From: Rufibacter sp. DG15C
Lineage (GTDB): Bacteria; Bacteroidota; Bacteroidia; Cytophagales; Hymenobacteraceae
Length of the DNA stretch: 64,000 nucleotides
Assembly (NCBI RefSeq): GCF_001577755.1
Contig: NZ_CP010776.1
Span: forward strand, 3,534,001-3,598,000
Reading direction: 5' to 3'
Positions 2,623-64,000 of the stretch are shown here, piece after piece. The translations under genes were made by a program, and so were the position numbers. The first letter of the stretch is position 1, and each line of letters opens with the position of its first letter. The notes below the pieces were generated by a model that was given only the letters and a program-made list of their open reading frames with translations, had not been told where the DNA came from and ran no database searches.

Positions 2623-2663
2623 AAACTGCCGCTTTCCTGTTGGAGAGCGGCAGTTTTGTTTTT
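2623..2663 (+). terminator. Intrinsic terminator of DUF885 gene
   Basis: An 11-bp perfect stem, AAACTGCCGCT (2623-2633) with AGCGGCAGTTT (2646-2656), is followed by a T-rich tract. That tract is also the first arm of 38-bp repeat copy 1, so terminator and repeat are fused. Confidence 0.85.
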
Positions 2664-2693
2664 AGCCTGTTTTCTGGAAAATACCCCAAAACG
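2657..2693. repeat. 38-bp palindromic repeat, copy 1
   Basis: The left arm, TGTTTTTAGCCTGTTTTCTG, is well kept. The right arm is degraded in its middle (GGAAAATACCCCAAAACG). The element begins inside the T tract of the preceding terminator. Confidence 0.8.
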
Positions 2694-2836
2694 GGCTATT
2701 GCTTTCCTATCAGCAGACCAGAAAAGCAGAAGAAAGCAAGGCGTGGGAGACAAGGCTAACCATTGTCTCTACATAGGCACCGCGCCAGCGAGAAAAGGCA
2801 TTGCAACTTCTCAACCAGCAGTCCGCCGGCCCTTGA

Positions 2837-2880
2837 CCTCGGGAAAAGAGACTGGTTAATTTAAGTCTCTTTTCCCGAGG
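2837..2880. repeat. 17-bp perfect inverted repeat
   Basis: CCTCGGGAAAAGAGACT (2837-2853) and its exact complement AGTCTCTTTTCCCGAGG (2864-2880) flank a 10-nt AT-rich loop. No T tract follows, so it is not a classic intrinsic terminator. Its function is unknown. Confidence 0.8.
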
Positions 2881-2957
2881 GAGAAAGTAATGACGTGTCT
2901 ATTGGTAGAAGTTTAAGCTCACTATGAAACGAATCACTTCTCACGGTGCGTCTCTGT

Positions 2958-3041
2958 GAGCCCCCGCCCTGTCCGAGCGGTCAGCGAGTTCGGGGGCTCT
3001 TGATTCTTTTGGTTACTTTTCTCATCAAGGAGAAAAGTGAC
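2958..3041. repeat. Double-hairpin noncoding block
   Basis: The first stem is GAGCCCCCG (2958-2966) with CGGGGGCTC (2991-2999), followed by a moderately T-rich stretch. The second stem is GTTACTTTTCTC (3012-3023) with GAGAAAAGTGAC (3030-3041), containing one G-T pair and a 6-nt loop. No gene ends just upstream. From memory, similar blocks recur in other Bacteroidota, which would make it a dispersed element; that needs a genome-wide search. Confidence 0.5.
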
Positions 3042-3182
3042 AGACCTGAGCAGAAAGTAACAGAAGAGAGATTAGGAAGGACAGAGTTAGGTGGTATTGG
3101 CGGAAATAAAAGAATCAGATAAAGAAGTCATCCCCCAACCCCCTTCAAAGGGTGACAAAAAAGCTCCATGCAAAAGGAAAAT

Positions 3183-3219
3183 CATTTTTGAGTTGATTTC
3201 TGAAAACAAGCCAAAAACG
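3183..3219. repeat. 38-bp palindromic repeat, copy 2 (degenerate left arm)
   Basis: The right arm, GAAAACAAGCCAAAAACG, is close to consensus. The left arm, CATTTTTGAGTTGATTTC, has drifted. It lies just before the TACTTTTG promoter element of the next gene. Confidence 0.7.
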
Positions 3220-3233
3220 ACCGGCAGAAAAGT

Positions 3234-3241
3234 TACTTTTG
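3234..3241 (+). promoter_or_regulatory. Bacteroidota -7 element TACTTTTG
   Basis: This is an exact match to TAnnTTTG, 41 bp before the ATG at 3283. No TTG is present at the expected -33 position, so only the -7 box supports it. Confidence 0.5.
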
Positions 3242-3282
3242 TGCGTTGTCTGTATTAAGCGACAAGAAGAACCGTGAATCCT

Positions 3283-4152
3283 ATGAAAAAGCTTATTTCC
3301 TTTAGTTTAGCCCTTGGTTTATCCCTGCCATTGTCATTGGCGGCCCAAACCCTGTCGGCGCCTCCTGCCAGCACGCAAGAAACCAAACCGAAGGCTTCTA
3401 AGTCCATTGCCAATTCTACCGCGCCCAAACCACCGGTGCCGCCCGCAGGTACCGCCAAAACGACAACTACCAAAACCACTACCACCAGCGCTGGGTCATT
3501 CAAAGGAACAACAGCAAGTACCTCTACTACAAAGGTCCCAACAAAGTCTACTACCCAGACCACTACTTCTTCCAAAACCAGCGAAGAAACCAAGGACAAG
3601 GAGAAAGCCCCAACACCGCCGCCAGCACCTTCCAAAGTGCAACGCCTCATCACTGAGCGGGAGCAATTGGTGTTAAAATACGACTACCTCAAAACACAGG
3701 AAAACAGCTTCTGGGGCAATGCCTCTAAAGAAGACTTGATTGCCGTGGTAGAAGCCTTGAAAGCCATTCTTCAGAAAGACTCAGAGATTATCCTAGCGGT
3801 AGAGCAAGAGAAACTAGAGGCCCGCAAAAACGCCGCCCAGCGCACTGCCCAATTAGAAGCAGAGACCAAGAAACTAAATACCCAGGTACAAGGCGATAAG
3901 CGTGTAGTGACGGACAACATCTATGAAATGAAGACCTCCTTGGTCTACGCCCAAAACCTGAACCGCCGTTTGTCCAAGCAAATCACAGACCTTCGTGAGG
4001 AGTTGGAAACCGCTGAGGATGCTAAGTTTGAGCATGACGCCATTGCCTTAGGCTTTTTCATCTTGTCCCTGGGCTTGGTATTCTATGTCATTCGGCTTAA
4101 AAACCGGATTGGCAACTTACAACAGCACCAAGAGGAAGAAGTAGAAGCGTGA
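3283..4152 (+). CDS. Exported coiled-coil protein with C-terminal membrane helix
   Basis: I do not recognise a family. The 289 residues comprise a signal peptide ending near SLPLSLAAQ, a Thr/Pro/Lys-rich low-complexity linker (about residues 25-115), a long predicted coiled coil (about 120-245) and a membrane helix (AIALGFFILSLGLVFYVIRL, about 253-272) with an acidic tail. An upstream in-frame GTG at 3274 is possible, but the ATG at 3283 starts a better signal peptide. The stop overlaps the next start by 4 nt (GTGA), so the two genes are probably translationally coupled and act together. Confidence 0.75.
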   Translation: MKKLISFSLALGLSLPLSLAAQTLSAPPASTQETKPKASKSIANSTAPKPPVPPAGTAKTTTTKTTTTSAGSFKGTTASTSTTKVPTKSTTQTTTSSKTSEETKDKEKAPTPPPAPSKVQRLITEREQLVLKYDYLKTQENSFWGNASKEDLIAVVEALKAILQKDSEIILAVEQEKLEARKNAAQRTAQLEAETKKLNTQVQGDKRVVTDNIYEMKTSLVYAQNLNRRLSKQITDLREELETAEDAKFEHDAIALGFFILSLGLVFYVIRLKNRIGNLQQHQEEEVEA

Positions 4153-4514
4153 ACGAAACGCTAGTACCGCTGGCCCAATACCTCACCTACGCCCAAGCTG
4201 TTGACCTTTATAATGACCTGATGGGTATAGAGGTAGTAGCCTTGGTAAAAAGCTGCGGCCCTCCCACCCTCCCTTACGGCGCGGGTACTTATTATCAGTT
4301 ATTGGTCAAGCAACAAGACCTTCTCCCAAGTCAAATTGTTTTAGCTGAGTTTTCACAAAAACAAGCCAAAAACGAAAGCCTGGCTCTTGCTTGCCCACGT
4401 TGCAGCTCTACCCAGGTAGGACTTAAAGCTAATTTATCCTGGTGGCGCAAAATCATTTACGCCGGTACCACCGTATGGAAATGCCAAACCTGCCACAGGA
4501 CGTATTTTAAATAA
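4149..4514 (+). CDS. Small zinc-ribbon protein, DUF2007-like N-terminus
   Basis: The protein has 121 residues and starts at a GTG overlapping the previous stop. The C-terminus carries two Cys pairs, CPRC (82-85) and CQTC (112-115), a likely zinc ribbon. The N-terminal part (YAQAVDLYNDLMGIEV, then YYQLLVKQQDL) resembles DUF2007-type domains; this is an inference. Residues 64-75 (VLAEFSQKQAKN) are encoded by a degenerate copy of the 38-bp palindromic repeat lying exactly between the two parts. The biological role is unknown. Confidence 0.72.
   Translation: MNETLVPLAQYLTYAQAVDLYNDLMGIEVVALVKSCGPPTLPYGAGTYYQLLVKQQDLLPSQIVLAEFSQKQAKNESLALACPRCSSTQVGLKANLSWWRKIIYAGTTVWKCQTCHRTYFK
4338..4374. repeat. 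38-bp palindromic repeat, copy 3, inside a CDS
   Basis: 28 of 37 positions match the consensus. The right arm (ACAAGCCAAAAACG) is nearly intact and the left arm is eroded. It is translated in the frame that decodes the consensus as VFGLFSGKQAKN, giving VLAEFSQKQAKN at residues 64-75 of the zinc-ribbon protein. Confidence 0.65.
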
Positions 4515-6643: not shown

Positions 6644-7156
6644 ATGAAAATAGAAGAAAATAAAGTGGTGACGCTCACCTACGAACTTAAGGTAACCAAC
6701 GAAGAAGGCGAGTCAACGCTAGTAGAAATTGCCGACGACGAGAACCCTATGGTGTTCTTGTATGGCGTGAGCGGATTGCCAGAGAAATTTGAGCAGGAAT
6801 TGTCAGGCAAGGAGTCTGGCCAGGACTTCAAATTCACTCTTTCTTCTGATGAAGGCTACGGTGACCTGGACGAGAGCGCGGTGGTGCCGGTTCCAAAATC
6901 GGTGTTTGAGGTAGACGGCAAGATTGACGAGGAAATGGTGCAGGAAGGCAACTACATTCCTATGTCAGATAACGAAGGAAACCACATGCAAGGCCGCATT
7001 GTAAGCGTGCATGATGACCACGTTTTAATGGACTTCAACCACCCACTGGCTGGCATGGACATGCACTTTGAAGGCAAAGTAGTGAGTGTGCGCGATGCGT
7101 CTCCAGAGGAGATTGCCCACGGCCACGTACACGGCGAAGGCGGACACCACCACTAA
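6644..7156 (+). CDS. slyD: FKBP-type peptidyl-prolyl isomerase, SlyD-like
   Basis: The protein has 170 residues and the SlyD layout. An N-terminal half-FKBP domain (YELKVTNEEGE, FLYGVSGLPEKFEQEL) is followed by the insert-in-flap region around DFKFTLSSDEGYGD, then MDFNHPLAGMDMHFEGKV returns to the FKBP fold. The His-rich tail (HGHVHGEGGHHH) is the metal-binding end typical of SlyD. It should isomerise prolyl bonds and chaperone proteins in the cytosol. A strong terminator follows at 7181. Confidence 0.93.
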   Translation: MKIEENKVVTLTYELKVTNEEGESTLVEIADDENPMVFLYGVSGLPEKFEQELSGKESGQDFKFTLSSDEGYGDLDESAVVPVPKSVFEVDGKIDEEMVQEGNYIPMSDNEGNHMQGRIVSVHDDHVLMDFNHPLAGMDMHFEGKVVSVRDASPEEIAHGHVHGEGGHHH

Positions 7157-7180: not shown

Positions 7181-7220
7181 AAAAAAGGCGGACTTGATTG
7201 GGTCCGCCTTCTTTGTTTTT
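7181..7220 (+). terminator. Intrinsic terminator of slyD
   Basis: AAGGCGGAC (7185-7193) pairs with GTCCGCCTT (7202-7210) and is followed by CTTTGTTTTT. The T tract is shared with 38-bp repeat copy 4. Confidence 0.85.
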
Positions 7221-7251
7221 GGGCTGTTTTGGTGGAAGTAGGCTAAAAACG
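7214..7251. repeat. 38-bp palindromic repeat, copy 4
   Basis: The copy is diverged (TGTTTTTGGGCTGTTTT, then GGAAGTAGGCTAAAAACG). It lies between the convergent slyD and ACP phosphodiesterase genes and is fused to the slyD terminator. Confidence 0.75.
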
Positions 7252-8551: not shown

Positions 8552-8589
8552 CGTTTTTCGGCTACTTTTAAGAAAACAGGCCAAAAACG
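8552..8589. repeat. 38-bp palindromic repeat, copy 5
   Basis: 31 of 38 positions match the consensus. The right arm, GAAAACAGGCCAAAAACG, is perfect and the left arm carries several changes. It lies between the upstream terminator and the CrtA-like gene, ending 7 bp before the likely TTG start. Confidence 0.85.
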
Positions 8590-12754: not shown

Positions 12755-12792
12755 CGTTTTTGGCCTGTTTTCTGGAAAACAGGCCAAAAACG
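12755..12792. repeat. 38-bp palindromic repeat, copy 6 (exact consensus)
   Basis: Both 18-bp arms are intact around a TG centre. This copy is the reference sequence used here. It starts on the base after the leuS stop codon and lies in the convergent leuS/YjbR junction, 8 bp before an intrinsic terminator. Confidence 0.95.
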
Positions 12793-16829: not shown

Positions 16830-16867
16830 CGTTTTTGGCCTGTTTCCTGAGAATTAGCCTAAAAACG
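16830..16867. repeat. 38-bp palindromic repeat, copy 7
   Basis: The left arm is near-consensus and the right arm diverged (GAATTAGCCTAAAAACG). It lies in a convergent junction, between the stop at 16824 and the shared terminator at 16891. Confidence 0.85.
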
Positions 16868-21241: not shown

Positions 21242-21279
21242 CATTTTTGGCCTGATTTCAAGAAAAGAGGCTAAAAACG
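21242..21279. repeat. 38-bp palindromic repeat, copy 8
   Basis: CATTTTTGGCCTGATTTC forms the left arm and GAAAAGAGGCTAAAAACG the right arm. It lies between two co-directional genes, 4 bp before the -33 TTG of mtaB. Confidence 0.85.
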
Positions 21280-21315: not shown

Positions 21316-21325
21316 CCCCCTGATT

Positions 21326-23504: not shown

Positions 23505-23550
23505 AAGCCGATTTTGGCCTGTTTCAACCAAAACAGGCCAAAATCGGCTT
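23505..23550. repeat. 38-bp palindromic repeat, copy 9, with 20-bp perfect stem
   Basis: The core is 23509-23546. Both arms carry the paired change CGATTTT/AAAATCG in place of CGTTTTT/AAAAACG. Flanks AAGC/GCTT extend it to a perfect 20-bp stem around a 6-nt loop. It lies in the convergent XRE/SBF junction and its right flank overlaps the stop codon of the SBF gene. Confidence 0.92.
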
Positions 23551-24592: not shown

Positions 24593-25097
24593 GGTGAAAG
24601 GTGTATGAGTGACTCTCCTATCGGCAAAGATGCAGGACAGTCGGCATTTAACAAATCCAAGTGGTCAGCAGGCGCATGGTTTAGTGTTTGTTTTCAAGAT
24701 GGTTTTGCAAGGCACGCTTTGTCTCCTTCGTTTTTGGCCTATTTCCTGGAAAATAGCCCAAAAACGAAAACACTTCTTCTTTTAGACTCTTACTGCTAAG
24801 GCCTATCTGCAAGGTGAGGTACTGTACTAAATCGGGCAGCAGATGTTCAAGAATGAACAAATTAAAATTATGTCACAATCTATTTCTACTGGAAATCAGC
24901 CAGTTAGATATCCGGCATCCCTTTGGCAACAGTTTTGATAAGGCATGACCAACTTGTAAGAAGGTTGTAGACCTCTTATGGCATGGCTCGGTTAAAAAAA
25001 CATGGTCAAGCAACCAAAGCGTCTATGTCTTCATCTATGGGTTATCTGCGGAGCACCATTTAACAATTCGTCACCCTTTCCATTATTGCCCAATCCT
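24593..25097. other. 505-bp divergent intergenic region
   Basis: It holds 38-bp repeat copy 10 (24729-24766) and a weak sigma54-like element at 24922-24940 (TTTGGCAACAGTTTTGATA, GG-N10-GA instead of GG-N10-GC). No gene is convincing; the open frame at 24569-24799 reads through the repeat. The remaining sequence shows nothing I can name. Confidence 0.6.
24729..24766. repeat. 38-bp palindromic repeat, copy 10
   Basis: CGTTTTTGGCCTATTTCC pairs with GGAAATAGCCCAAAAACG. The CTG/CAG of the consensus is replaced on both sides by CTA/TAG. It is the only copy found between divergent genes. Confidence 0.9.
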
Positions 25098-30498: not shown

Positions 30499-30536
30499 CG
30501 TTTTTTGCCTATTTTCACGACAAAACCACAAAAACG
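30499..30536. repeat. 38-bp palindromic repeat, copy 11
   Basis: CGTTTTTTGCCTATTTTC forms the left arm and a degraded AAAACCACAAAAACG the right, with GTC/GAC flanks extending the pairing. It lies 8 bp before the terminator at 30545. Confidence 0.8.
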
Positions 30537-31421: not shown

Positions 31422-31459
31422 TGTTTTTAGCCTGTTTTCTAGAAACCAGGCTAAAAACA
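31422..31459. repeat. 38-bp palindromic repeat, copy 12
   Basis: TGTTTTTAGCCTGTTTTC pairs with GAAACCAGGCTAAAAACA. Both ends carry matched changes (TG/CA and AGCC/GGCT) relative to consensus, and a C/G flank extends it. It lies in a convergent junction. Confidence 0.9.
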
Positions 31460-34400: not shown

Positions 34401-34460
34401 AAACCAAAAAGCGTTTTTGGCCTGATTTCCGGGAAACAGGCCAAAAACGCTTTTTGGTTT
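34401..34460. repeat. 38-bp palindromic repeat, copy 13, with 11-bp palindromic flanks
   Basis: The core is 34412-34449 with a CCGG centre. Unique flanks AAACCAAAAAG (34401-34411) and CTTTTTGGTTT (34450-34460) are perfectly complementary and extend the stem to nearly 30 bp with two mismatches. It lies in a convergent junction and has a T-rich right end. Confidence 0.93.
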
Positions 34461-35191: not shown

Positions 35192-35239
35192 GCCATCGTT
35201 TTTGGTATGTTTTCTCGAAAACAGACCAAAAACGATGGC
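35192..35239. repeat. 38-bp palindromic repeat, copy 14
   Basis: The core is 35197-35234. The inner GGCC is changed on the right to GACC and on the left to GGTA, so it is nearly paired. Flanks GCCAT/ATGGC extend the stem. It lies between co-directional minus-strand genes, downstream of the porin. Confidence 0.9.
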
Positions 35240-40244: not shown

Positions 40245-41549
40245 ATGCGTCAACTCACTCTCTCTTATCAAGACTTACCTGTTCCTATAGCGCAATGGAA
40301 ACAGCAAGCCTTGGCCTGGGCACATCATGGACATGAGGTAGTGGCGTATTATGAGCCGAATCAAATACCTTTCCGTCAAGGCGCTTTCCAGAATCTGCTT
40401 GGATTAAGGAAAAATGCTGCGGGATTGATCCAGGAGGGCATTGCCCGTTCTTTTAACGAGCTTCAGCAGTTGATTGACCAGTCGCTCCAAACTCCAATTT
40501 TTGGCTACCTCACTTATGACCTAAAAAACCAGATAGAGGAGTTACAAAGCCAGCATCCAGATCATATAGGTTTTCCAGAGCTGTACTTCTTTCAGCCGGA
40601 TACTTGGCTTGAATGGACCGAGGGAGAAGTTCAAATATGTTCTTTTACAGAAGACCCAACTCAAATTGCCGCTTCAATCCATAACACTCCGTTTTTGGCC
40701 TCTTTTCCAGAAAACAGCCTAAAAACGAAGCCTAGAATCCTTAAAGAAGACTACCTTCAAACAGTTGAGAAGCTTAGAACTCATATTCTGGAAGGTGATG
40801 TATACGAAGTAAACTACTGCCAGGAGTTCTTCACAGAGAAGGCCAACATTGATCCTTTGGCCGTCTTCTGGCAATTGAATGCGGCCTCTCCTACGCCTTT
40901 CGCGGGCTTTCTGAAACTAGAGCAGCGCTATCTACTGTGCGCCAGTCCAGAGCGATTCCTTAAAAAAGAAGGCGACTTGCTCATCTCCCAGCCCATCAAG
41001 GGTACCATCAAGCGCGGCGCTACGTCAGAGCAAGACCAGGCCAACAAACAAGCCTTAGCCTCCAGCGAAAAAGAACAGGCCGAGAATATGATGATTGTAG
41101 ACCTAGTCCGGAATGACCTCAACCGCATAGCCCAAACCGGCACGGTTAAGGTGGAAGAATTCTTTGGTCTTTACCCTTTCCAATATGTTTGGCAGATGAT
41201 CTCTACCATAGTGGGCAAAGTTGGGGCTTCTGTTTCTGCAATGGAGATCCTTAAAGCCACCTTCCCGATGGGCAGCATGACGGGCGCTCCTAAGATTAAA
41301 GCCTTGGAGTTGATAGAAGAATATGAGCAGACCAAGCGCGGCTTGTATTCGGGGAGCTTTGGGTACTTTTTACCCAACGGCGACTTTGATTTTAATGTGG
41401 TGATCAGAAGCCTACAGTACAATGCCCAGAACTTATACTTGTCTTTTGAGGTGGGCAGCGCCATCACCTATGACTCTGACCCAGAGCAGGAATACCAAGA
41501 GTGTCTTTTAAAGGCCGCCGCAATTACTCGGGTTCTGGAGCAGAAGTAA
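40245..41549 (+). CDS. pabB: Aminodeoxychorismate synthase component I, with repeat insertion
   Basis: This 434-residue chorismate-binding enzyme makes 4-amino-4-deoxychorismate for folate synthesis with a PabA glutaminase. SQPIKGTIKRGA carries the Lys of the PIKGT motif that marks PabB (TrpE has PIAGT). NMMIVDLVRNDLNRIA, PMGSMTGAPKIKALELI and RGLYSGSFGYF follow. Residues 149-161 (PFLASFPENSLKT) are encoded by copy 15 of the 38-bp palindrome. They sit in the linker between the N-terminal domain and the chorismate-binding core, which starts near EDYLQTVEKLRTHILEGDVYEVN. The reading frame is kept. Confidence 0.92.
   Translation: MRQLTLSYQDLPVPIAQWKQQALAWAHHGHEVVAYYEPNQIPFRQGAFQNLLGLRKNAAGLIQEGIARSFNELQQLIDQSLQTPIFGYLTYDLKNQIEELQSQHPDHIGFPELYFFQPDTWLEWTEGEVQICSFTEDPTQIAASIHNTPFLASFPENSLKTKPRILKEDYLQTVEKLRTHILEGDVYEVNYCQEFFTEKANIDPLAVFWQLNAASPTPFAGFLKLEQRYLLCASPERFLKKEGDLLISQPIKGTIKRGATSEQDQANKQALASSEKEQAENMMIVDLVRNDLNRIAQTGTVKVEEFFGLYPFQYVWQMISTIVGKVGASVSAMEILKATFPMGSMTGAPKIKALELIEEYEQTKRGLYSGSFGYFLPNGDFDFNVVIRSLQYNAQNLYLSFEVGSAITYDSDPEQEYQECLLKAAAITRVLEQK
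40690..40727. repeat. 38-bp palindromic repeat, copy 15, inside pabB
   Basis: 33 of 38 positions match the consensus, with a CCAG centre (inverted orientation relative to copy 6). It is translated as PFLASFPENSLKT in frame with pabB; the consensus in this frame reads FLACFLENRPKT. Confidence 0.92.
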
Positions 41550-45801: not shown

Positions 45802-47913
45802 ATGAATAAAGCGGCCTTTTTAAACATTATACGGCAAGTAGCGCCCATCCAGGACCAGGAGGTTGAAGACCTGGAAGAGTTGGTGGCGTCGTTCCCGTAT
45901 TGCCAGACCGCTCACATTCTGCTGGCTAAGGCCGCGTATGACCGGGGCAGTATGCTCTCTACGCAGAAAATGCGCAGGGCCGCCGCCCACGCCTCTAACC
46001 GCCAACTCCTCAAACGCATTGTCTACGCGCCTCCTATCCTGCACAATGCGGTGGATCAAGAGGTCTTAGAAGAAGAGGCACCGGCTGTTTTTGCCCCAAT
46101 TCCTGGAAACGAGGCCAAAAACGCCTTCCCAGAAGTTGCCCCCGAAGAAAGCATCTTACAGGCCTTAGAAAATATTTCAGAAGAGGACCTGCTGGACGTT
46201 GAAACCGATGTCCCAGATGAGATAGAGGAACCAGAAGAAGAATCCATTGAAGAGCAGCCTATTGAAGAGCCTGCAACTGAGGATGAAGCGGAGATTGAAG
46301 AGCCTTCCCAACCAGTTGATGCTACTCAAATCCTGGGAGAAACCATTTCAGAGCCTCAACTTCAAGTGGTAGAGAATCCATTAGAGGATTCTGCACCTGA
46401 GGAAGAATTTATTGCTGAATCTGAATTAGAGCAGGAAGCTTCATATGATCTGCTTGATGAGCAGGATTCTGCTTTTATAGAGAATTTCATTTTAGAAGAA
46501 GATCAAGCATCAGAAGAAGAATCAGAAGAAATCCAGCCCGAACTCAAGGAAGAGGAATCTGTGTCTGTTCCTATAGATATAGAGAAATTCGCAACAGAGG
46601 CCTTAGATGTAGAAGATGCAACGATAGAAGGTGAGTCTTCCTTGAATGACGAGCTAAACTATTCCACTTTTGAAGAGGATAATGAAGCACCTTCTTTAGA
46701 TTTTGCTGAAGATACAACTGAAGAGGCTGAACTCGCTGCCATTAGCTTGGATGAAGAAGAGCCAACTCATTTAACTTCTCTATCATCTATTGAAGACCAA
46801 CCTGTAGATGCAGAAATAGAGGCTGATTTTATTACCAACGCCGTCCAAGGATTAACCTCCCACAAGACAGCGAATGAACAACCTGTTGAGGAAATCCTTT
46901 TAACAGAGGAGCCAGCACTTGAATCCATTATTGCTGCCGAGCTGCTAAGCGAGCCAGTATCTGAGCAGGAAACCATTGCAGAGGACTCTTTGGAGCTACT
47001 TCCTAATGAAGTTGAAATAGAAGGCCTTATTAATGCTGACACTCAGGCAATTGACGTATCTAAAGAAGAGCCTGAAGTAGATGCATTGCCTAGCTCAGAA
47101 GAGGATGAGCTGTTCAGCTTGATGCAGATTGATGGTTTAGCCACGCTTTCGGCTCCTATTCCTAGCGTAAACCTTTCGCACGCCGAAATCATCTCTGAGC
47201 TTACCTCCCGCCCAGAGCCTATTGAGTTCATGCCAGAAGAAGCTGTCCTTCAAGAAGAGGCAGTAACAGCTGCTATCATTGAAGAGGCCCCTTTGGTGGT
47301 GAACACAGAGTTGGCAGAGTTTGTAGCGGAATTGCAAGGCCGGCCAGTAGTTGACAATCATGCTTTAGAAGGAGAACAAACTTCCTACCCTATGTTGCAG
47401 ATGGCGCCAGTGGCTGCTGCAACGTCAGAGGTGGAAACGGAGAAAGACCCCTACCTGAGCATTTTCTACCATAATAGCCTGGCGTATAGGATGGATTCCA
47501 GCCGCATGGGCGAGACCATTCAGTTACGGGATGACCTGACCACCTCCAAGCCCTACTACTTCCAGCCAGACTTGATCCTGGAGCACGTGAAAGGCAACGG
47601 GGCCATGGAACAAGTAGTGAAACCGGTGGCCAAGTTAGATGTTCAACTCAGCATCATAGACCAGTTCCTGAAGTCCAACCCCAAGCTGAAAAGCATGGCG
47701 CATTCCCAGCAGAAGAATGAGCCTCAGGAGGACCTTTCAGCTAAAAGCTCTAAGATTAAGAAGAACCTGGCATCAGAGAATCTGGCCCTCATCTTCATTA
47801 AACAAGGCAAATTCAAAAAAGCGCTCAAAATTTATGAGCAGCTTATTATGAAATTCCCCGAAAAAAAGAGTTACTTTGCCGAACAGATTGAAAAATTAAG
47901 AAACGAATTGTAA
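45802..47913 (+). CDS. Acidic TPR protein with repeat insertion
   Basis: The protein has 704 residues. A conserved N-terminal domain (about 1-80; VASFPYCQTAHILLAKAAYDRGS, RRAAAHASNRQLLKRIVY) is followed by a very acidic low-complexity region (about 85-540), a block starting DPYLSIFYHNSLAYRMDSS, and a C-terminal TPR-like hairpin (ENLALIFIKQGKFKKALKIYEQLI). The role is unknown; a scaffold role near envelope biogenesis fits the lptE/secG context. Residues 96-107 (VFAPIPGNEAKN) are encoded by repeat copy 16 at the border between conserved and acidic parts. ATG 45802 replaces an in-frame extension overlapping lptE. Confidence 0.85.
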   Translation: MNKAAFLNIIRQVAPIQDQEVEDLEELVASFPYCQTAHILLAKAAYDRGSMLSTQKMRRAAAHASNRQLLKRIVYAPPILHNAVDQEVLEEEAPAVFAPIPGNEAKNAFPEVAPEESILQALENISEEDLLDVETDVPDEIEEPEEESIEEQPIEEPATEDEAEIEEPSQPVDATQILGETISEPQLQVVENPLEDSAPEEEFIAESELEQEASYDLLDEQDSAFIENFILEEDQASEEESEEIQPELKEEESVSVPIDIEKFATEALDVEDATIEGESSLNDELNYSTFEEDNEAPSLDFAEDTTEEAELAAISLDEEEPTHLTSLSSIEDQPVDAEIEADFITNAVQGLTSHKTANEQPVEEILLTEEPALESIIAAELLSEPVSEQETIAEDSLELLPNEVEIEGLINADTQAIDVSKEEPEVDALPSSEEDELFSLMQIDGLATLSAPIPSVNLSHAEIISELTSRPEPIEFMPEEAVLQEEAVTAAIIEEAPLVVNTELAEFVAELQGRPVVDNHALEGEQTSYPMLQMAPVAAATSEVETEKDPYLSIFYHNSLAYRMDSSRMGETIQLRDDLTTSKPYYFQPDLILEHVKGNGAMEQVVKPVAKLDVQLSIIDQFLKSNPKLKSMAHSQQKNEPQEDLSAKSSKIKKNLASENLALIFIKQGKFKKALKIYEQLIMKFPEKKSYFAEQIEKLRNEL
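46086..46123. repeat. 38-bp palindromic repeat, copy 16, inside the TPR gene
   Basis: 30 of 38 positions match the consensus; the right arm GAGGCCAAAAACG is strong. It is read in the same frame as copy 3 (consensus peptide VFGLFSGKQAKN) and gives VFAPIPGNEAKN. Confidence 0.8.
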
Positions 47914-48360: not shown

Positions 48361-48398
48361 CGTTTTTGGCTTACTTTTAGGAAAACAGGCCAAAAACG
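48361..48398. repeat. 38-bp palindromic repeat, copy 17
   Basis: CGTTTTTGGCTTACTTTT and GGAAAACAGGCCAAAAACG, with a short AC/GT flank pairing. It begins 8 bp after the secG terminator. Confidence 0.9.
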
Positions 48399-50665: not shown

Positions 50666-50703
50666 CATTTTTGGCCTATTTCTAAGAAAACAGGGCAAAA
50701 ACA
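50666..50703. repeat. 38-bp palindromic repeat, copy 18
   Basis: CATTTTTGGCCTATTTCT and AGAAAACAGGGCAAAAACA. It lies in the convergent groEL/lipoprotein junction, just after the terminator. Confidence 0.85.
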
Positions 50704-55728: not shown

Positions 55729-55766
55729 CGTTTTTAGCTTATTTTTGAGAAAACAGGCCAAAATCC
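55729..55766. repeat. 38-bp palindromic repeat, copy 19
   Basis: CGTTTTTAGCTTATTTTT and GAGAAAACAGGCCAAAATCC. It lies 11 bp after the pckA terminator and 8 bp before the rsmE start. Confidence 0.85.
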
Positions 55767-56488: not shown

Positions 56489-56526
56489 CGTTTTTGGCCT
56501 CTTTTCTGGAAAACAATGCAAAAACG
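56489..56526. repeat. 38-bp palindromic repeat, copy 20, supplies a start codon
   Basis: 34 of 38 positions match the consensus. The right-arm GGCC is changed to ATGC, creating the ATG at 56516 that starts the DUF4159 gene; the first codons MQKR come from the element. The copy fills the whole 27-bp gap from the rsmE stop and enters the next gene. Confidence 0.92.
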
Positions 56527-57203: not shown

Positions 57204-57251
57204 GAATCCGCTTTTGGCATAATTCCATAGAAACAGGCCAAAAACGGATTC
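57204..57251. repeat. 38-bp palindromic repeat, copy 21
   Basis: The core is 57209-57246 (CGCTTTTGGCATAATTCC and ATAGAAACAGGCCAAAAACG). Flanks GAATC/GATTC extend the pairing. It lies between the DUF4159 and smc genes. Confidence 0.85.
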
Positions 57252-57344: not shown

Positions 57345-60300
57345 ATGGAATTAGCAAGATTAGAGATTAAGGGCTTTAAGAGTTTCGGGGATAAGGTCAC
57401 CATTAACTTTGATAGCGGCATTACTGGTATTGTAGGACCCAACGGTTGCGGCAAGTCCAACATCGTGGACGCCATTAGGTGGGTATTGGGCGAGCAGAAA
57501 ACCCGTAACCTGCGCTCAGACAAAATGGAGAGCGTGATTTTTAACGGTACCAAGAACCGAAAGCCCCAGCAACTGGCCGAGGTCTCTCTTACCTTCAACA
57601 ACAACAAGGGCATTCTGCCTACCGAATACTCGCAGGTCACCATTACGCGCAAGTACTACCGTACCGGCGAGAGCGAATACCTGCTCAACAACGTTACTTG
57701 CCGCCTCAAGGACATCAACGACCTATTCCTGGACACCGGGATTGGCTCAGACTCCTATGCCATCATTGAGTTGAAGATGGTGGATGACATCCTCAACGAC
57801 AAAGACAACTCGCGCCGTACCCTGTTTGAGGAAGCGGCCGGCATCTCCAAGTTCAAGGTGCGCAAGAAACAGACCATGCGCAAGTTGGAAGAAACTGACG
57901 CCGATTTGGAGCGTGTAGAGGACGTCTTGTTTGAAATAGGCAAGAACTTGAAGAGCCTAGAGCGCCAGGCCAAAACCACTGAAAAGTATTACTCCCTTAA
58001 AGACGAATATAAGAAGCTAAGCCTGGAATACGCCCGCCGCAACATTGGCCACCACCAAGAGGCTTTGGAGCGTCTGGAAAGCGACCTTAAGAAGGAAACT
58101 GAACGCAAAGGTGGTTATTCTGAGGAGTTGGTAGCGCTGGAAGATGCGTTGCAGGAGCAGAAGACCCTGGTTGACCGTACCCAGCTGCAGTTGCAGAACA
58201 CCCAGAAAGAGGTGCACGAGCATACCAGCCAATTGCGCCAACTGGAAAACGAGATTAAGTTGAAAAGCGAGCGCAAGTTCTATTTGCAGGAACGCGCCAA
58301 GACTCTTCAGAGCCAAATAAGCCAGGATACTACCAACATTGGGCAGACCGAGGCCAGCCTGGGACAGTTGCAGAATGACCTAGAGGAGATTCAGGAAGAG
58401 CTACTCGTGTCTGAGGAGCAACTGGGTCTTACCAAAAAAGAAATGGAGCATGTAAATCAGCAGAAGTCTGATTTACAGAGAGAGGTGCAGGAGAAAACCC
58501 TGGCCCAGCGCCAGGTGCAGAATGAGGTGTTCACGCTCAACAAGAGCATTGAAATCACCCAGATGCAGATTCAGACGCACCGCGCCGAACTGGAGCGGAT
58601 GCAGCAGATGGAAGGCTCAGAGAACAGCCTCCAGATGCAGTATGAAGATGCGCTCGCTGAAACCCAGCAACAACTGGAGGAAGCCCAGGCCCAACTGGTA
58701 GCGTTACAGGAGGCGGAGCGTCTCTTGCAAGAAGAAATGACCAATACGGAGGCCACCTTGCATGAATACCGCCAGCAATTAATAGACATCAACCGCCAGC
58801 TGGACTCCAAGAAAAACCAGTACACCTTGACCAAGTCCTTGGTGGACAATTTGGAAGGCTTCCCAGATGCCATCAAGTTTCTATACAAGTCCAAGACCTG
58901 GCAGAAGCCGGCCCCGCTCCTGTCAGACATCATCTCCTGTGACCAGGAGTACAAGGCCCTGATTGAAAGCTACCTGGAGCCGTACATGAACTTCTTCGTG
59001 GTAGAAACCGCCGAGGACGCCGTAGAAGCCATTCATCTCCTTAACAACCAAAACAAAGGCCGCGCCAACTTCATCATCCTTTCTGAGGTGGAAGATTTGG
59101 ACGTGACCGCCACCATCAGCACCCCTAAGTACAAGGCGGCTCTGGAGACCGTCGCCTCTGAGGAGAAATACCATCCTTTGTTGCGCTACATGCTCAATGA
59201 GGTGTACATCAGTGCCACGTCAGACACGGAGTTGTACCTGAGTGACGGCCGCACCTACATCTTAAAAGACGGCTCCGTCATTAAAAAGCCATTGAGCGTT
59301 TCAGGAGGGTCTGTTGGGTTATTTGACGGCAACCGTTTGGGTCGCAAACAAAACCTTGAGAAACTGGCAGAGGAACTGGAAGCCTTGAAAGAGCAGTCTG
59401 AGCTGATGAAAAACAAAATCAGCACGCTCCAGCACGTTCTTCAAAACCAGAAGAACGGCACCCAGGCCGAGGCCATCAGACTGCAGGAACGTTCCATTAA
59501 TACCCTGCAACAAGAGCTCATCAGCCATAAGGTGCGCTATGAGCAGTTCCAGTTGAACCTACAAAACCAGGCCAGCAAGAAGGATGAGCTGTTTGAGAAA
59601 ATCCAGGAACTAGGCGAAACCTTAGCCGACCTCCTCCCCGATTCCGAAAGCAAAAATCTGGCCCTCAAAAGCTATGAGCAGGAGCTGGCGGGCTTAGCAC
59701 AAGTCCTTGACAAACAGAACGAAATCATCGCCGAGGTAAGCGGTATCTTTAACCAGGAGAACATCAAATTCCATCAGCTCAAGAACCGCCTGCAAAGCAT
59801 TCAGCAGGAACTGGCCTACAAGCAGAAGACCGTGATGAACCACCAGGAGCGCCTGGTGCAGTTGCAGGATGAGCTGGCCCGCGCCGAGGATGAGACCGCC
59901 ACCTTGGAGCAGTTTGTAGAAGACCAGTCCTATCAATTGGAGGAAGGCCTGGTGCAGAAAAAAGACCTTGCCCAGCAACTGGACGAGGTGGAGAAAGCCT
60001 ACTTCCATCTTCGCGGCGAAGTGGACGAGAAGGAGAAAGCCATCCGGGAGTTGCAACGTAAAAAAGAGAACACCGATGAAGTGTTCCAATCCATGCAGCA
60101 GGCCATCACCGACACCCGCATTAAATTGGTGGCCGTGTTAGAGCGTCTGTCAGCGGAGTTCAACATGAGCCAGGAAGATTTGGCGGAGGCCCCTACCGAG
60201 AAGCTGGACATCTCTAATGAGGAACTAAGCCAGCAGGTAAACACTATCAAGCACAAACTGGAGAACGTAGGACCGGTGAATCCCATGGCCGCCGAGGCCT

Positions 60301-60905
60301 ACCAGGAGATTGAAACCCGTCACCAGTTCATCCAGACGCAGAAGAATGACTTGGTAGGCGCCAAGCAGCAACTTTTAGATACCATCTCGGAGATTGACAC
60401 CGTGGCCAAAGAAAAGTACTTAGAGGCCTTTGACCAGATCAAGGACAACTTCATGCGCGTGTTTCGGTCCTTATTCTCTGAGGAGGATACTTGTGATCTG
60501 TACATCCAGGACCCAAGCAATCCGCTGGAGTCTAAGATTGAGATCATGGCCCGGCCTAAAGGCAAGCGTCCGTTGACCATCAACCAGCTGTCTGGTGGTG
60601 AGAAGACATTAACGGCCATCTCTCTGCTGTTTGCCATATACCTCTTGAAGCCTGCCCCGTTCTGTATCTTTGACGAAGTGGACGCTCCTTTGGATGATGC
60701 TAACATTGACAAGTTCAACAACATTGTGAAGAAGTTCTCAGGAGACTCGCAGTTCATTGTGGTGACGCACAACAAGCGCACCATGATCTCCACAGACGTG
60801 ATCTACGGCATCACCATGCTGGAGGCCGGCGTGTCCAGGGTGATACCTGTAGACTTAAGGGAATTGGCTCCAGAACCTGAAGAAGCGGCCGCTCTGACAG
60901 CCTAA
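57345..60905 (+). CDS. smc: Chromosome segregation protein SMC
   Basis: The 1186-residue protein has the SMC layout. The N-terminal ATP-binding head has Walker A GPNGCGKSNIVDAIRW (about 27-42). Two long coiled coils flank a hinge domain (about 500-660, with GFPDAIKFLYKSK and LSDGRTYILKDGSVI). The C-terminal head has the ABC signature LSGGEKTLTAISLLFA (about 1080) and Walker B CIFDEVDAPLDDAN. It organises and segregates the chromosome with ScpA and ScpB, which are not in the window. Convergent with the acyltransferase gene. Confidence 0.97.
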   Translation: MELARLEIKGFKSFGDKVTINFDSGITGIVGPNGCGKSNIVDAIRWVLGEQKTRNLRSDKMESVIFNGTKNRKPQQLAEVSLTFNNNKGILPTEYSQVTITRKYYRTGESEYLLNNVTCRLKDINDLFLDTGIGSDSYAIIELKMVDDILNDKDNSRRTLFEEAAGISKFKVRKKQTMRKLEETDADLERVEDVLFEIGKNLKSLERQAKTTEKYYSLKDEYKKLSLEYARRNIGHHQEALERLESDLKKETERKGGYSEELVALEDALQEQKTLVDRTQLQLQNTQKEVHEHTSQLRQLENEIKLKSERKFYLQERAKTLQSQISQDTTNIGQTEASLGQLQNDLEEIQEELLVSEEQLGLTKKEMEHVNQQKSDLQREVQEKTLAQRQVQNEVFTLNKSIEITQMQIQTHRAELERMQQMEGSENSLQMQYEDALAETQQQLEEAQAQLVALQEAERLLQEEMTNTEATLHEYRQQLIDINRQLDSKKNQYTLTKSLVDNLEGFPDAIKFLYKSKTWQKPAPLLSDIISCDQEYKALIESYLEPYMNFFVVETAEDAVEAIHLLNNQNKGRANFIILSEVEDLDVTATISTPKYKAALETVASEEKYHPLLRYMLNEVYISATSDTELYLSDGRTYILKDGSVIKKPLSVSGGSVGLFDGNRLGRKQNLEKLAEELEALKEQSELMKNKISTLQHVLQNQKNGTQAEAIRLQERSINTLQQELISHKVRYEQFQLNLQNQASKKDELFEKIQELGETLADLLPDSESKNLALKSYEQELAGLAQVLDKQNEIIAEVSGIFNQENIKFHQLKNRLQSIQQELAYKQKTVMNHQERLVQLQDELARAEDETATLEQFVEDQSYQLEEGLVQKKDLAQQLDEVEKAYFHLRGEVDEKEKAIRELQRKKENTDEVFQSMQQAITDTRIKLVAVLERLSAEFNMSQEDLAEAPTEKLDISNEELSQQVNTIKHKLENVGPVNPMAAEAYQEIETRHQFIQTQKNDLVGAKQQLLDTISEIDTVAKEKYLEAFDQIKDNFMRVFRSLFSEEDTCDLYIQDPSNPLESKIEIMARPKGKRPLTINQLSGGEKTLTAISLLFAIYLLKPAPFCIFDEVDAPLDDANIDKFNNIVKKFSGDSQFIVVTHNKRTMISTDVIYGITMLEAGVSRVIPVDLRELAPEPEEAAALTA

Positions 60906-60924: not shown

Positions 60925-60978
60925 AATCGGTCCGTTTTTGGCCTCTTTCCCGGGAAAGAGGCCAAAAACGGACCGATT
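60925..60978. repeat. 38-bp palindromic repeat, copy 22, within a perfect 54-bp palindrome
   Basis: The core is 60933-60970, with paired internal changes (CCTCTTTCC/GGAAAGAGG). Flanks AATCGGTC/GACCGATT are complementary, so all 54 bp form a perfect palindrome with no loop spacer. It lies in the convergent smc/acyltransferase junction. Confidence 0.95.
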
Positions 60979-61548: not shown

Positions 61549-61587
61549 AAAGAGGCGTTTTGAGGATTGAGACTACAATGATACAAA

Positions 61588-61614
61588 AAATACCAGCCTT
61601 TTAAGCTGGTATTT
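61588..61614 (-). terminator. Terminator of the OMP gene
   Basis: AAATACCAGC pairs with GCTGGTATTT; on the minus strand a T run follows. Confidence 0.8.
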
Positions 61615-61631
61615 AAACGATGTGAAATGGT

Positions 61632-62246
61632 TTATCTCTTCATACTCCGTTCTCTGAACAAGTAAACTTGCAAGCCAACATTGATGGACGGTCCCACCTC
61701 TGTGTAGTAATTGTCCTGGTTGGCAGGGTTCTTCTCTTTGTAGTAGGTAAACATGATGGCAGGCTCTACGGCTATCTTCGGGTTAATGAAAAGCGAATAC
61801 CCCACGCCGCCCCTTATCTCAGAGATGTCCCGTTTCAGGCTATTGGATAGGTTATAGATCCCAAATCCATAGCTGGCCTCGCCGAAGATCCCGTTGTTCA
61901 AAAAGTACCTGGCAAAAGGCCCCGCCAAAATATGAGTGGACGGATCATTGTCCGCCCCGTCCATTTTGACGCTGGTATGCGATACCGTACCCAAAACGCC
62001 TACGGCCAAATCATTGATTACAAAATACCCGAACCTTCCCTGCACGTCTATCTGCTTCTTGGAGCCTGACTGGGTTGAGTTGCTACTAGTGTGATTTTCA
62101 ATAGATCGATAGGCACCATTGATGCCACCGCCCACCATAATGGAGCGCTGAATAACCTTAGCGGCTAGAAGATTTCCCCTATTTTCTTGTGCGTGTGCCC
62201 TTGAAACTCCCAATAAGAGCAATAAAGTGTAAACCAATATCTTCAT
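61632..62246 (-). CDS. Outer-membrane beta-barrel protein
   Basis: The 204 residues have a signal peptide (MKILVYTLLLLLGVSRAHAQ) and an eight-strand-type barrel pattern: IMVGGGINGAYRS, GRFGYFVINDLAVGVLGTVSHTS, ILAGPFARYFLNNGIFGEASYGFG, GGVGYSLFINPKIAVEPAIMFTYY and INVGLQVYLF. It resembles the porin-family outer-membrane proteins of Bacteroidota. The function is unknown. Confidence 0.85.
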   Translation of the reverse strand: MKILVYTLLLLLGVSRAHAQENRGNLLAAKVIQRSIMVGGGINGAYRSIENHTSSNSTQSGSKKQIDVQGRFGYFVINDLAVGVLGTVSHTSVKMDGADNDPSTHILAGPFARYFLNNGIFGEASYGFGIYNLSNSLKRDISEIRGGVGYSLFINPKIAVEPAIMFTYYKEKNPANQDNYYTEVGPSINVGLQVYLFRERSMKR

Positions 62247-62343
62247 GCATACTAATCTGGTGATGAGCCTTATACGCTCCCAAACAAGCTGCAGTCTTGG
62301 TTATTTGAATATGATGATAGCACCTAGCCAAGAAAATGAACTG

Positions 62344-63105
62344 CTACTCCACCAACAGTTTCATCAGTTCCTTCTCTAAGGACTTAGCATACTGATAGCC
62401 TACCTCAAAAATCTCCTGGGCTTTGTTGATGGCATAGATGTGATAGTTTTTTAGGGCAGGCGGCTCCAGGAAGATAGAACATATGGCAATGCGCTGCTGC
62501 ACATTGGCATTGATGGCCAGATGGAAAACGCGTTCGGTCACCTGCCTAATGCTTTTGATATCTGCCTGGTGGTTGACGGGGTTAACGTGCACGCCAATGA
62601 TTTTATCACAGGTGCCGGTCAGGCACTCCACGGGTAGGTTGTTGAGCAGCCCCCCGTCCACCAGCAGCATTTCTTGGTGGGCCACCGGCTGAAACATGAT
62701 GGGCAAGGCAGAAGAGGCCCTAAGGGCGTTGGCCACCAACCCTTCCGTCAGGTAGACGGTGCTGCCCTGGTTTAGATCTGTAGCCGAAATAATCAACTGG
62801 GTGGGAAGGTCCGCGAAGGTGATGCCCTCCAAGTGCTGTTCAAATATTTTAAGCAGCGCGTTGGAATGGAGAATCCCCTTGTTGAGGGCTGGCCGCAAAA
62901 ATTGCGTCACAGAAACATCACGCACCAGTTCAAGAACCTCCTCTGGGGCAAAACCTGCAGCAATAAACGCCCCTGCAATCGCACCTGAACTGGTCCCTGA
63001 TATTACATCGATGGGAATCTGCAACTCATTCAGCGCCTTAATGACGCCCAAATGCGCAATGCCGCGGGCTGCGCCGCCAGACAAGCAGACTCCTATGCGC
63101 ACCAT
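62344..63105 (-). CDS. Patatin-like phospholipase
   Basis: The 253 residues have the patatin/RssA layout. The oxyanion loop is SGGAARGIAHLG (9-20), the nucleophile lies in GTSSGA (Ser39), and DGGLLNNLPVECL provides the catalytic Asp. It should hydrolyse acyl esters of lipids. It starts three bases after the stop of the MBL-fold gene, so the two are co-transcribed. Confidence 0.93.
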   Translation of the reverse strand: MVRIGVCLSGGAARGIAHLGVIKALNELQIPIDVISGTSSGAIAGAFIAAGFAPEEVLELVRDVSVTQFLRPALNKGILHSNALLKIFEQHLEGITFADLPTQLIISATDLNQGSTVYLTEGLVANALRASSALPIMFQPVAHQEMLLVDGGLLNNLPVECLTGTCDKIIGVHVNPVNHQADIKSIRQVTERVFHLAINANVQQRIAICSIFLEPPALKNYHIYAINKAQEIFEVGYQYAKSLEKELMKLLVE

Positions 63106-63108
63106 GAT

Positions 63109-63951
63109 TTAAAGCGCTGACAGCGGGAAGACTTGGTCTACCCGGACGCCTTTTTCCGTTTGCTTTACGGTGCAGCACTCATTCACTGAGTCATGCTCTA
63201 AGAAAAGAACCCAATTTTCGGCAGCGGCCTGGTTCAAGAATGCTTCCTTCTCTTGCAGGGTGAGTAATGGCCTGGTGTCATAGCCCATCACGTAAGGCAA
63301 AGGTAAATGCCCAACAGAGGGTAACAGATCAGCCATAAAACAAACGGTGCGGCCTTTGTATTGAATACGCGGCACCATCATCTTATCGGTGTGGCCGTCC
63401 ACATAGGTAACGTCAAAACCAGGTAGGAACTGTTGCTGCCCTACTTCTAGAAATGACAGGTGCCCGCTATCCTTTAAAGGCATTATGTTCTCCTTCAGGA
63501 AAGAGGCTTTCTCTCTGGGGTTAGGCACCGTGGCCCAAGTCCAATGGTCCTGGTTGCTCCAGTACTGCGCCTTCGGGAAGACCATCTCGAAGCTAGTGCC
63601 ATTGCTGCTGTATTTCACAGAGCCACCACAGTGGTCAAAGTGCAGGTGCGTCAAAAAGACATCAGTGATATCTGAGAAATCAAACCCGGCTTTGTGCAAG
63701 GACTTTTCCAGTGAATCGTCTCCGTACAGGTAATAGTGGCTGAAGAACTTGGCGTCCTGCTTGTCTCCTATGCCGTTGTCAATTAAAACAAGCCTGTCTC
63801 CTGATTCTACCAGCAGGCAGCGCATGGCCCAACTGCAGAGATTGTTCTCATCTGCTGGGTTGGTCTTCTGCCAAAGCGTTTTGGGTACCACGCCAAACAT
63901 AGCGCCACCGTCCAGCTTAAAATTTCCGGTAGGAATAGGGTATAGTTTCAT
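63109..63951 (-). CDS. MBL-fold metallo-hydrolase
   Basis: This 280-residue metallo-beta-lactamase-fold enzyme has the zinc motif THLHFDHCGG (about 100-109), a downstream VDGHTDKMMVP histidine and a final LEHDSVNECC. It resembles the quorum-quenching-lactonase/N-acyl hydrolase branch. The substrate is unknown. It is the first gene of a two-gene unit with the patatin gene. Confidence 0.9.
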   Translation of the reverse strand: MKLYPIPTGNFKLDGGAMFGVVPKTLWQKTNPADENNLCSWAMRCLLVESGDRLVLIDNGIGDKQDAKFFSHYYLYGDDSLEKSLHKAGFDFSDITDVFLTHLHFDHCGGSVKYSSNGTSFEMVFPKAQYWSNQDHWTWATVPNPREKASFLKENIMPLKDSGHLSFLEVGQQQFLPGFDVTYVDGHTDKMMVPRIQYKGRTVCFMADLLPSVGHLPLPYVMGYDTRPLLTLQEKEAFLNQAAAENWVLFLEHDSVNECCTVKQTEKGVRVDQVFPLSAL

Positions 63952-63963
63952 AGAGAGAAAATG

Positions 63964-64000
63964 CGTTTTTTGCCTGTTTTCTGGAAAAGAGCCTAAAAAC
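63964..64000. repeat. 38-bp palindromic repeat, copy 23, cut by window edge
   Basis: CGTTTTTTGCCTGTTTTC and GAAAAGAGCCTAAAAAC; the last base lies outside the window. It lies upstream of the MBL-fold gene. Confidence 0.88.

What the first reader, a model, noticed from the sequence alone, without database searches (positions are those of the whole stretch)
2657..64000. A 23-copy family of 38-bp near-palindromic elements
The window holds 23 copies of one element (left arm CGTTTTTGGCCTGTTTTC, centre TG, right arm GAAAACAGGCCAAAAACG), about one per 2.8 kb, dispersed as single units rather than arrays. One copy (12755-12792) is exact consensus. Copies range from exact to eroded, implying different ages, and centres CTGG or CCAG show both orientations. 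No RAYT-type transposase is encoded here. I know of no named family with this sequence.
Basis: seen in the sequence. Interest (0 to 1): 0.88.

Follow-up and report, generated by a model that had tools for sequence, protein, structure and literature searches.

The report
Genome-wide palindromic DNA words with dialects
Bacteria of the genus Rufibacter carry many copies (over a thousand in this genome) of a 38-letter mirror-symmetric DNA word, mostly just past the ends of genes, and species spell it in different dialects at the same places, so it looks less like a jumping element than like a mark read by an unknown protein.

Summary
The family is real: 22 distinct copies in the window (16 by a strict pattern with none in 100 shuffles) and 1062 places genome-wide (reversed control 0). 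All 16 genomes searched of its genus have it; 104 genomes of five other family genera have 0 or 1, like the control. One genus member is Rufibacter psychrotolerans.

A recently spreading element is not supported. Presence at gene ends is concordant in three species and offsets from stop codons are conserved; no consistent target duplication; a 30-kb probably acquired stretch has none; one coding site aligns without gaps in 11 species. Yet spelling differs between species at the same places. Half-sites are rigidly paired, most inner pairs vary independently in the own genome, and G.U pairs show no clear excess: mainly a DNA dyad, not an RNA stem. It is mostly one per gap, often near or inside terminators.

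Best reading: a recognition site of an unidentified dimeric protein, rewritten in place, most like dyad DNA uptake sequences, but without a type IV pilus ATPase. Uptake is inferred. Main rival: a chromosome-organising or insulating protein site.

The parts
2657..2694 (.). palindromic element, after DUF885 gene 770-2569(+)
   Evidence: score 39.0
3183..3220 (.). weak or eroded element upstream of ORF 3274-4152
   Evidence: score 18.4
4337..4374 (.). element inside ORF 4149-4514(+), whose protein is conserved; 9 species (own and 8 relatives) align here without gaps
7214..7251 (.). element in convergent gap, directly after a GC hairpin terminator of 6644-7156
8552..8589 (.). element after 7982-8485; several relatives have stops or gaps here, so probably non-coding
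12755..12792. exact-consensus element starting at the base after the leuS stop codon; at offset 0 in 5 of 10 relatives (one of them strongly eroded), with a sixth (G048) seen
16830..16867 (.). element between ORF 16339-16824(+) and the 3' end of glutamine synthetase III gene 16949-19141(-)
21242..21279 (.). element between 19379-21223(+) and 21284-22645(+)
23509..23546 (.). element in convergent gap before 23549-24592(-), with a matched change at position 3 (CGATTTT..AAAATCG)
24729..24766 (.). element in a divergent gap (24592-/25002+)
30499..30536 (.). element after 28050-30473(+), also in G017; the 9 other relatives with this gap show a GC hairpin with T-rich tail instead (judged by eye)
31422..31459 (.). 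element in convergent gap (31263+/31736-)
34412..34449 (.). element in the loop of a 12-bp gene-specific stem; other species have different stems at the same place
35197..35234 (.). element after the 3' end of 35262-37184(-), upstream of 34507-35100(-)
40690..40727 (.). element inside the coding DNA of a chorismate-binding enzyme gene 40245-41549(+) (called pabB-like here; the gene name is my inference); 11 species align without gaps
46086..46123 (.). element inside ORF 45742-47913(+)
48361..48398 (.). element after a T-tailed hairpin (ggggcctttttttg) and before ORF 48500-48892(+)
50666..50703 (.). element in convergent gap after the Cpn60 chaperonin gene 48942-50585(+)
55729..55766 (.). element after 53991-55649(+)
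56489..56526 (.). element from the base after one stop codon into the next ORF; its right arm holds the ATG at 56516
57209..57246 (.). element between 56516-57181(+) and the SMC gene 57345-60905(+), with a 6-bp flank stem
60933..60970 (.). perfect palindrome (19 of 19 pairs) in convergent gap after the SMC gene, with an 8-bp flank stem

Best explanation
The 38-bp sequence is a genome-wide recognition site rather than a mobile unit. Shown: it is a rigid double-stranded dyad (own dialect in outline GTTTT-N6-GTTTT-N4-AAAAC-N6-AAAAC) with T/A-tract positions kept across species and a middle that differs by species; it was found only in Rufibacter within its family (one doubtful single exception); it keeps many of its places over speciation while the spelling there follows each species' dialect; at well-resolved coding sites it varies without insertion; it is missing from one probably acquired stretch. 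Inferred: an unidentified dimeric protein reads it. Because about 50 bits at over a thousand sites follow changes of dialect, per-site selection is an unlikely keeper; a drive is more likely, in which DNA bearing the current dialect is preferentially taken up or recombined (as for DNA uptake sequences) and sites accumulate where they do least harm: just past stop codons, inside or after terminators, rarely in short promoter gaps or genes.
For: Restricted to the genus. Conserved places: 144 of 193 gene trios agree in presence or absence in all three species (68 all present, 22.5 expected if independent; 76 all absent, 25.7 expected); offsets conserved. In-place dialect: at 25 G048 loci with the same offset (<=3 nt) as in G000 or G017, 6.12 of 8 dialect letters are G048's, as at 9 G048-only loci (6.22). 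31 orthologous G000-G048 pairs differ nearly as much as shuffled ones (10.90 vs 11.34 of 38, SD 0.21). Columns 3-7, 12, 15-16, 23-24, 27 and 32-36 differ in 0-7% of 67 G000-G017 pairs while flank columns differ in 31-66%. Gap-free coding site in 11 species. Half-site spacing exactly 19 in 161 pairs; half-sites rarely alone. Gaps hold one copy more often than chance: 131 occupied vs 82.8+-4.4. Probably acquired 30-kb run: 0, 10.5 expected. Precedent: passages of PMC3630211 report species dialects of DUS, inverted DUS pairs at terminators, and 1294 DUS in Simonsiella muelleri as overlapping dyads. ComEC and DprA in 16 of 16. Passages of PMC7965970 report a Bacteroidota species preferring its own DNA.
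Against: No PF00437 (PilT/T2SS-type ATPase) over its cut-off in any of the 8 Rufibacter tested (4 have weak matches below it), so the known DUS/USS route seems missing. ComEC and DprA are widespread (10 and 11 of 14 control genomes) and prove nothing. Known DUS are short motifs; here halves occur almost only as dyads. Coding copies are few (9 of 172 in G000 by a crude caller; some may be chance), and short divergent gaps are avoided (4 of 86), which also fits a transcription-related function. Some pairs covary (position 7 in G000 and G017; positions 1, 6, 7, 13 in G048; flanks 1-6 in 7 of 11 species). G048 copies are heterogeneous. Rufibacter competence was not shown and no reader protein was identified.
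Confidence: 0.42

Rival explanations
1. Binding site of a chromosome-organising or insulating protein: a dimer sits between transcription units, stops read-through, anchors loops or recruits a topoisomerase; the dialects reflect co-evolution of its DNA-reading residues with its sites.
For: Rigid dyad with largely independent halves and T/A tracts about 10.5 bp apart within each arm. Mostly one per gap; 116 of 131 convergent gaps of 100-1500 bp occupied. Often directly after a terminator's T-tract. Short divergent gaps avoided (4 of 86).
Against: 48.5-54.8 bits per dyad at over a thousand sites is far more than is needed to find them, and genome-wide dialect change is hard to explain by selection on each site. 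Some copies lie in coding DNA. Convergent gaps have canonical terminators about as often with the element (90 of 130) as without (19 of 33).
Confidence: 0.33
2. REP-like non-autonomous mobile element: an ancient transposase (RAYT or other) scattered the palindrome at gene ends; species dialects are successive active subfamilies.
For: Copy number, length and gene-end bias match REPs as described in PMC3733652 (abstract, one section and passages seen). PF01797 proteins occur in 15 of 16 genus members, and in L168 (G054) an element lies roughly 250 nt on either side of the TnpA-like gene. Slight 2-bp and 4-bp direct-repeat excess at the borders in G000 (13 vs 6.8; 4 vs 0.9).
Against: None in the own genome, which has 1062 copies; both ends follow the same consensus, with no tag at one end; positions shared between species; gap-free coding sites; a 30-kb run without copies.
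Confidence: 0.13
3. RNA hairpin at mRNA 3' ends (terminator tip or exonuclease block).
For: Downstream of genes; part of the copies sit in the loop of T-tailed stems (56 of 252 convergent, 26 of 166 codirectional gene ends); T enrichment at +5 to +14 in sense; free-pair covariation in G048 (z 6.8), weaker in G012, G032, G006 (z 2.6-2.8).
Against: Sense-strand mismatches G.U 276 vs A.C 245 (227 vs 211): no clear RNA bias. Inner pairs 8-13 and 18 do not covary in G000 and G017 (z -1.7 to 1.8). No T-tract follows the palindrome itself. Two of seven tRNA genes have the element behind a complete terminator, though it could serve the neighbouring gene; that was not checked.
Confidence: 0.08
4. Palindrome-perfecting mutation (template switching) alone creates and homogenises the repeats.
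For: Flanks 1-6 are complementary beyond expectation in 7 of 11 species (z at least 2.6).
Against: Does not by itself give a genome-wide species consensus; inner pairs vary independently in G000 and G017.
Confidence: 0.04

Closest known systems
DNA uptake sequence (DUS) dialects of Neisseriaceae (PMC3630211; abstract and passages seen)
   Same: Thousands of copies, dialect conserved within each species, association with terminators, intergenic and coding copies, dyad arrangement of 1294 copies in Simonsiella muelleri
   Different: Bacteroidota; 38-bp near-obligate dyad with a rigid 19-base half spacing; no PilT-type ATPase found; uptake role untested
Repetitive extragenic palindromes, GTAG/CGTC (PMC3733652; abstract, one section and passages seen)
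   Same: 20-40 bp palindromes, high copy, mostly downstream of genes and between convergent or codirectional genes
   Different: Symmetric ends without a tag; no RAYT in the own genome; inherited positions; gap-free coding sites; species dialects at shared places
HIP1 highly iterated palindrome of cyanobacteria (PMC4390886; search listing only)
   Same: Highly iterated palindrome common in one clade, function unsettled
   Different: 8-bp GCGATCGC with methyltransferases that recognise its inner sequences; here 38 bp with a variable middle (methylation not examined)

Membership tests
DUS/USS-type uptake sequence | High copy number limited to a clade | tested here: met
DUS/USS-type uptake sequence | Species dialects at inherited places, varying by substitution | tested here: met
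DUS/USS-type uptake sequence | Short motif that also occurs singly | tested here: not met
   G000: at score >=14, 327 of 344 element half-sites pass; 31 others pass outside called elements, 10 of them without a partner; reversed-matrix control 4
DUS/USS-type uptake sequence | Type IV pilus machinery | tested here: not met
   PF00437 over cut-off in 0 of 8 Rufibacter and 1 of 41 family genomes; other pilus parts not searched
DUS/USS-type uptake sequence | Promotes DNA uptake or transformation | not testable with these tools
   Needs an experiment; ComEC 16 of 16 and DprA 16 of 16 only permit it
REP (RAYT-associated) | Extragenic palindrome of 20-40 bp in high copy | tested here: met
REP (RAYT-associated) | GTAG or CGTC tag at one end | tested here: not met
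   column and flank tables: both ends follow the same CGTTTTT consensus; no conserved tetranucleotide in the flanks
REP (RAYT-associated) | Cognate RAYT gene in the genome | tested here: not met
   0 in G000 at E <= 0.001, although 15 other genus members have PF01797 proteins
MITE / insertion element | Target-site duplication | tested here: not met
   no consistent length; slight excess at 2 bp (13 vs 6.8 in G000, 6 vs 2.4 in G048) and at 4 bp in G000 (4 vs 0.9)
MITE / insertion element | Empty sites in relatives | tested here: inconclusive
   no length change at a coding site; elsewhere relatives are too diverged (aligned blocks of G000-G017 listed are 70-87% identical)
Intrinsic terminator | GC stem directly followed by a U-tract | tested here: inconclusive
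   only a part is nested in such stems; convergent gaps have terminators about as often without the element (codirectional gaps: 63 of 170 with, 53 of 210 without)

The most novel reading that the evidence does not exclude
Rufibacter carries a previously undescribed self-recognition system: a near-obligate 38-bp dyad with species dialects, read by an unknown dimeric protein and spread by molecular drive through DNA uptake or recombination that does not use a type IV pilus ATPase. It would be a dialect-type uptake sequence in Bacteroidota with a new kind of receptor.
Probability: 0.33. Interest if true: 0.88.

Novelty: new variant of a known kind. Interest (0 to 1): 0.74.

Why it matters
About a thousand sites per genome whose spelling differs from species to species at the same places, in some cases through protein-coding DNA, suggest that something reads this word and that the genome is kept in line with it. 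Several dialects in one genus give a natural experiment: the reading protein should be one whose DNA-contacting residues change with the dialect. If it is an uptake signal, it would show self-recognition in natural transformation arising independently of the classical machinery; if it is a structural site, it would be an unusually dense gene-boundary marker.

Tried and rejected
Recent spread or copies of different ages: not supported for the own genome. G048 keeps heterogeneity (Spearman 0.24, p 0.003; variance 5.7 vs 2.45; one non-member row dropped), which could be an unfinished dialect change. Replacement of terminators: suggested by gap 30473-30637 and parts, not borne out as a general rule. 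RNA stem: no clear G.U excess. Compensation for a missing Rho: Rho in 60 of 60 family genomes. Even spacing beyond gene structure: seen in G048 only (0.6% of nulls as low), not in G017 or G000. Elements in divergent gaps as a clue to an autoregulated reader: listed, no candidate. IMG/VR pattern scan: 0. Genome contigs: 0 with the strict and 1 with the looser pattern. Structure prediction was not used because no protein candidate was found.

Limits: genes were called by my own codon-score script, so starts, and with them gap lengths and the coding share, are approximate. The dialect-free finder gave 7 control matches in the 11 Rufibacter regions (about 750 kb), so some of the 9 coding elements may be chance; the pabB-like site (33 of 38 letters) is unlikely to be. 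Of the 104 genomes of other genera, 9 have one match; that of G024 looks element-like, the other listed ones do not (capped list). Of the 18 papers (15 listed) only PMC3733652 was opened.

Full report
What is there. The window holds 22 distinct copies of a 38-bp palindrome; 16 pass a strict pattern for which 100 shuffles give none. The window lies at 3534001-3598000 of a single-contig 4,143,738-bp genome, in which the pattern has 1062 places at <=3 mismatches and its reversed control none. A looser pattern in named genomes hit only Rufibacter psychrotolerans (the own genome may be left out there), and that record is genus member G027 (100% over 1001 bases). All 16 genus members have the pattern, 8 to 1335 places each; of 104 genomes of five other genera 95 have none and 9 have one, as in the control. 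A dialect-independent finder gives 15-42 per 100 kb in eleven Rufibacter regions (0-3 control matches each) and none in about 310 kb of five other genera.

Anatomy. In 464 kb of the own genome (151 usable copies with <=4 mismatches) the best kept positions are 4-6, 12, 15, 16 and their mirror images (95-100%), while left-half positions 8, 10, 11, 13, 14, 17 and 18 hold the consensus in 69-81%. In 544 kb, strong half-sites of opposite strand lie exactly 19 bases apart in 161 pairs; each other distance listed occurs once; half-sites rarely occur alone. Information is about 48.5 bits per dyad in G000 and 54.8 in G048. Inner pairs 8-13 and 18 vary independently in G000 and G017, position 7 covaries; in G048 positions 1, 6, 7 and 13 covary (z 6.6-9); flanks 1-6 are complementary beyond expectation in 7 of 11 species. 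On the sense strand G.U mismatches are not clearly commoner than A.C (227 vs 211; 276 vs 245; the data overlap). The main constraint therefore appears to be on double-stranded DNA read symmetrically.

Where it sits. In 544 + 480 + 480 kb of three species (G000, G017, G048; 172, 178 and 184 elements), 116 of 131 convergent gaps of 100-1500 bp carry it, against 4 of 86 divergent gaps under 250 bp; 49 of 108 divergent gaps of 250-1500 bp also carry one. Among convergent and codirectional gaps, single occupancy is commoner than random placement by length allows: occupied 131 vs 82.8+-4.4 and doubly occupied 8 vs 32.2+-2.8 in G000; 118 vs 79.3+-4.2 and 20 vs 32.9+-3.0 in G017; 118 vs 80.5+-4.4 and 25 vs 33.6+-2.9 in G048. 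In the 464-kb sample the median distance to the upstream stop codon in codirectional gaps is 35 nt. Of 252 convergent gene ends with the element, a canonical terminator lies upstream of it in 62, the element sits in the loop of a T-tailed stem in 56, a terminator lies downstream in 70 and none was found in 77; of 166 codirectional ends the counts are 27, 26, 13 and 107 (categories overlap). Nine tRNA genes were found in the fetched own-genome loci; of the seven whose 3' side was examined, two have the element behind a complete terminator.

Inherited places, changing spelling. For 193 genes with partners in all three species the element downstream is present in all in 68 (22.5 expected if independent) and absent in all in 76 (25.7 expected). 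Offsets agree within 3 nt in 47 of 89 pairs with G017 and 22 of 74 with G048, against 8.2 and 7.0 expected. At such places the middle differs: positions 7-18 are TGGCCTGTTTTC in G000 and G017 and CGGGCTCATTTC in G048, often GGGGCTCTTTTT in G045, varied elsewhere. G048 sites at shared offsets are as fully in G048 dialect as G048-only sites (6.12 vs 6.22 of 8 letters; n 25 and 9). Orthologous elements keep some memory between G000 and G017 (6.70 differences vs 8.64 shuffled, 76 pairs) but hardly any between G000 and G048 (10.90 vs 11.34, 31 pairs). Columns 3-7, 12, 15-16 and their mirror images differ in 0-7% of G000-G017 pairs, flank columns in 31-66%. In G022, G037 and G051 anchor matches exceed the control (27, 17, 17 vs 2, 0, 0) but the free positions pair near the shuffled expectation (0.36-0.41), so the system may be decaying or differently spelled there.

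No insertion. The copy at 40690-40727 lies in the coding DNA of a chorismate-binding enzyme gene. Eleven species align there without any gap; six have a recognisable element (G000, G017, G048, G012, G054, G045) and five a sub-consensus sequence (judged by eye). The coding copy at 4337-4374 aligns gap-free in nine species. Of nine coding copies called in 544 kb of G000, eight are gap-free in the available partners and one has a gap in G048, with the chance caveat given under Tried and rejected. One residue changes to fit the dialect (K to M) and others differ likewise. No consistent target duplication was found. A run of 13 called genes over 30.4 kb without partners in the fetched stretches of G017 and G048 has 0 elements where 10.5 would be average; a tRNA-Ser gene lies about 1.6 kb beyond its end. 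The own genome has no PF01797 match.

What it most likely is. A site read by an unknown dimeric protein and rewritten in place. The nearest precedent found is the DUS of Neisseriaceae: passages of PMC3630211 describe dialects per species, inverted pairs at terminators and, in Simonsiella muelleri, 1294 DUS arranged as overlapping dyads; molecular drive was seen there only as a title in its reference list. It resembles a DUS in distribution and evolution, but it is not filed as one: half-sites rarely occur singly and no PilT-type ATPase was found. Some Bacteroidota are competent and prefer their own DNA (passages of PMC7965970), and ComEC and DprA are present in 16 of 16, which permits but does not show the uptake reading. 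The structural-protein rival fits position and symmetry equally well; I rank it second because of the excess information and the genome-wide dialect changes. That ranking is inference.

Literature. Searches for Rufibacter with palindromic, REP with Bacteroidetes, palindromic repeats, convergent genes, intergenic and Cytophagales, three of four, and Rufibacter with repetitive and intergenic showed no description of this family in their listings; the library holds open-licence papers only.

Noticed in passing
Own genome C1 about 3770641-3810536 (in L114-L116): Probable genomic island near a tRNA-Ser (gga) gene: 13 called genes without partners in the fetched stretches of G017 and G048 and without any element; the largest element-free interval in the 544 kb, about 52 kb, spans it.
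   Followed up: partly
L168, L171, L172, L173: PF01797 proteins (IS200/RAYT type) in 15 of 16 Rufibacter, none in the own genome. In L168 an element lies roughly 250 nt on each side of the gene; in the other three loci no strict-anchor element lies within 500 nt.
   Followed up: partly
window 56489-56526: One element fills the space between a stop codon and the next ORF, and its right arm contains that ORF's ATG; the element is at offset -1 to 4 in 9 of 11 relatives.
   Followed up: partly
window 45742-47913: 723-aa acidic protein without a Pfam match at E 0.001, poorly conserved between species, with an element in its coding DNA.
   Followed up: no
L033:1191-1265 and 2600-2674: Two tRNA-Asp genes with nearly identical terminators followed by TCGTTTTTAGG, which resembles a left arm of the element without a right arm.
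   Followed up: no
G024:C1:218561-218598: A single element-like match in a genome of another genus of the family.
   Followed up: no
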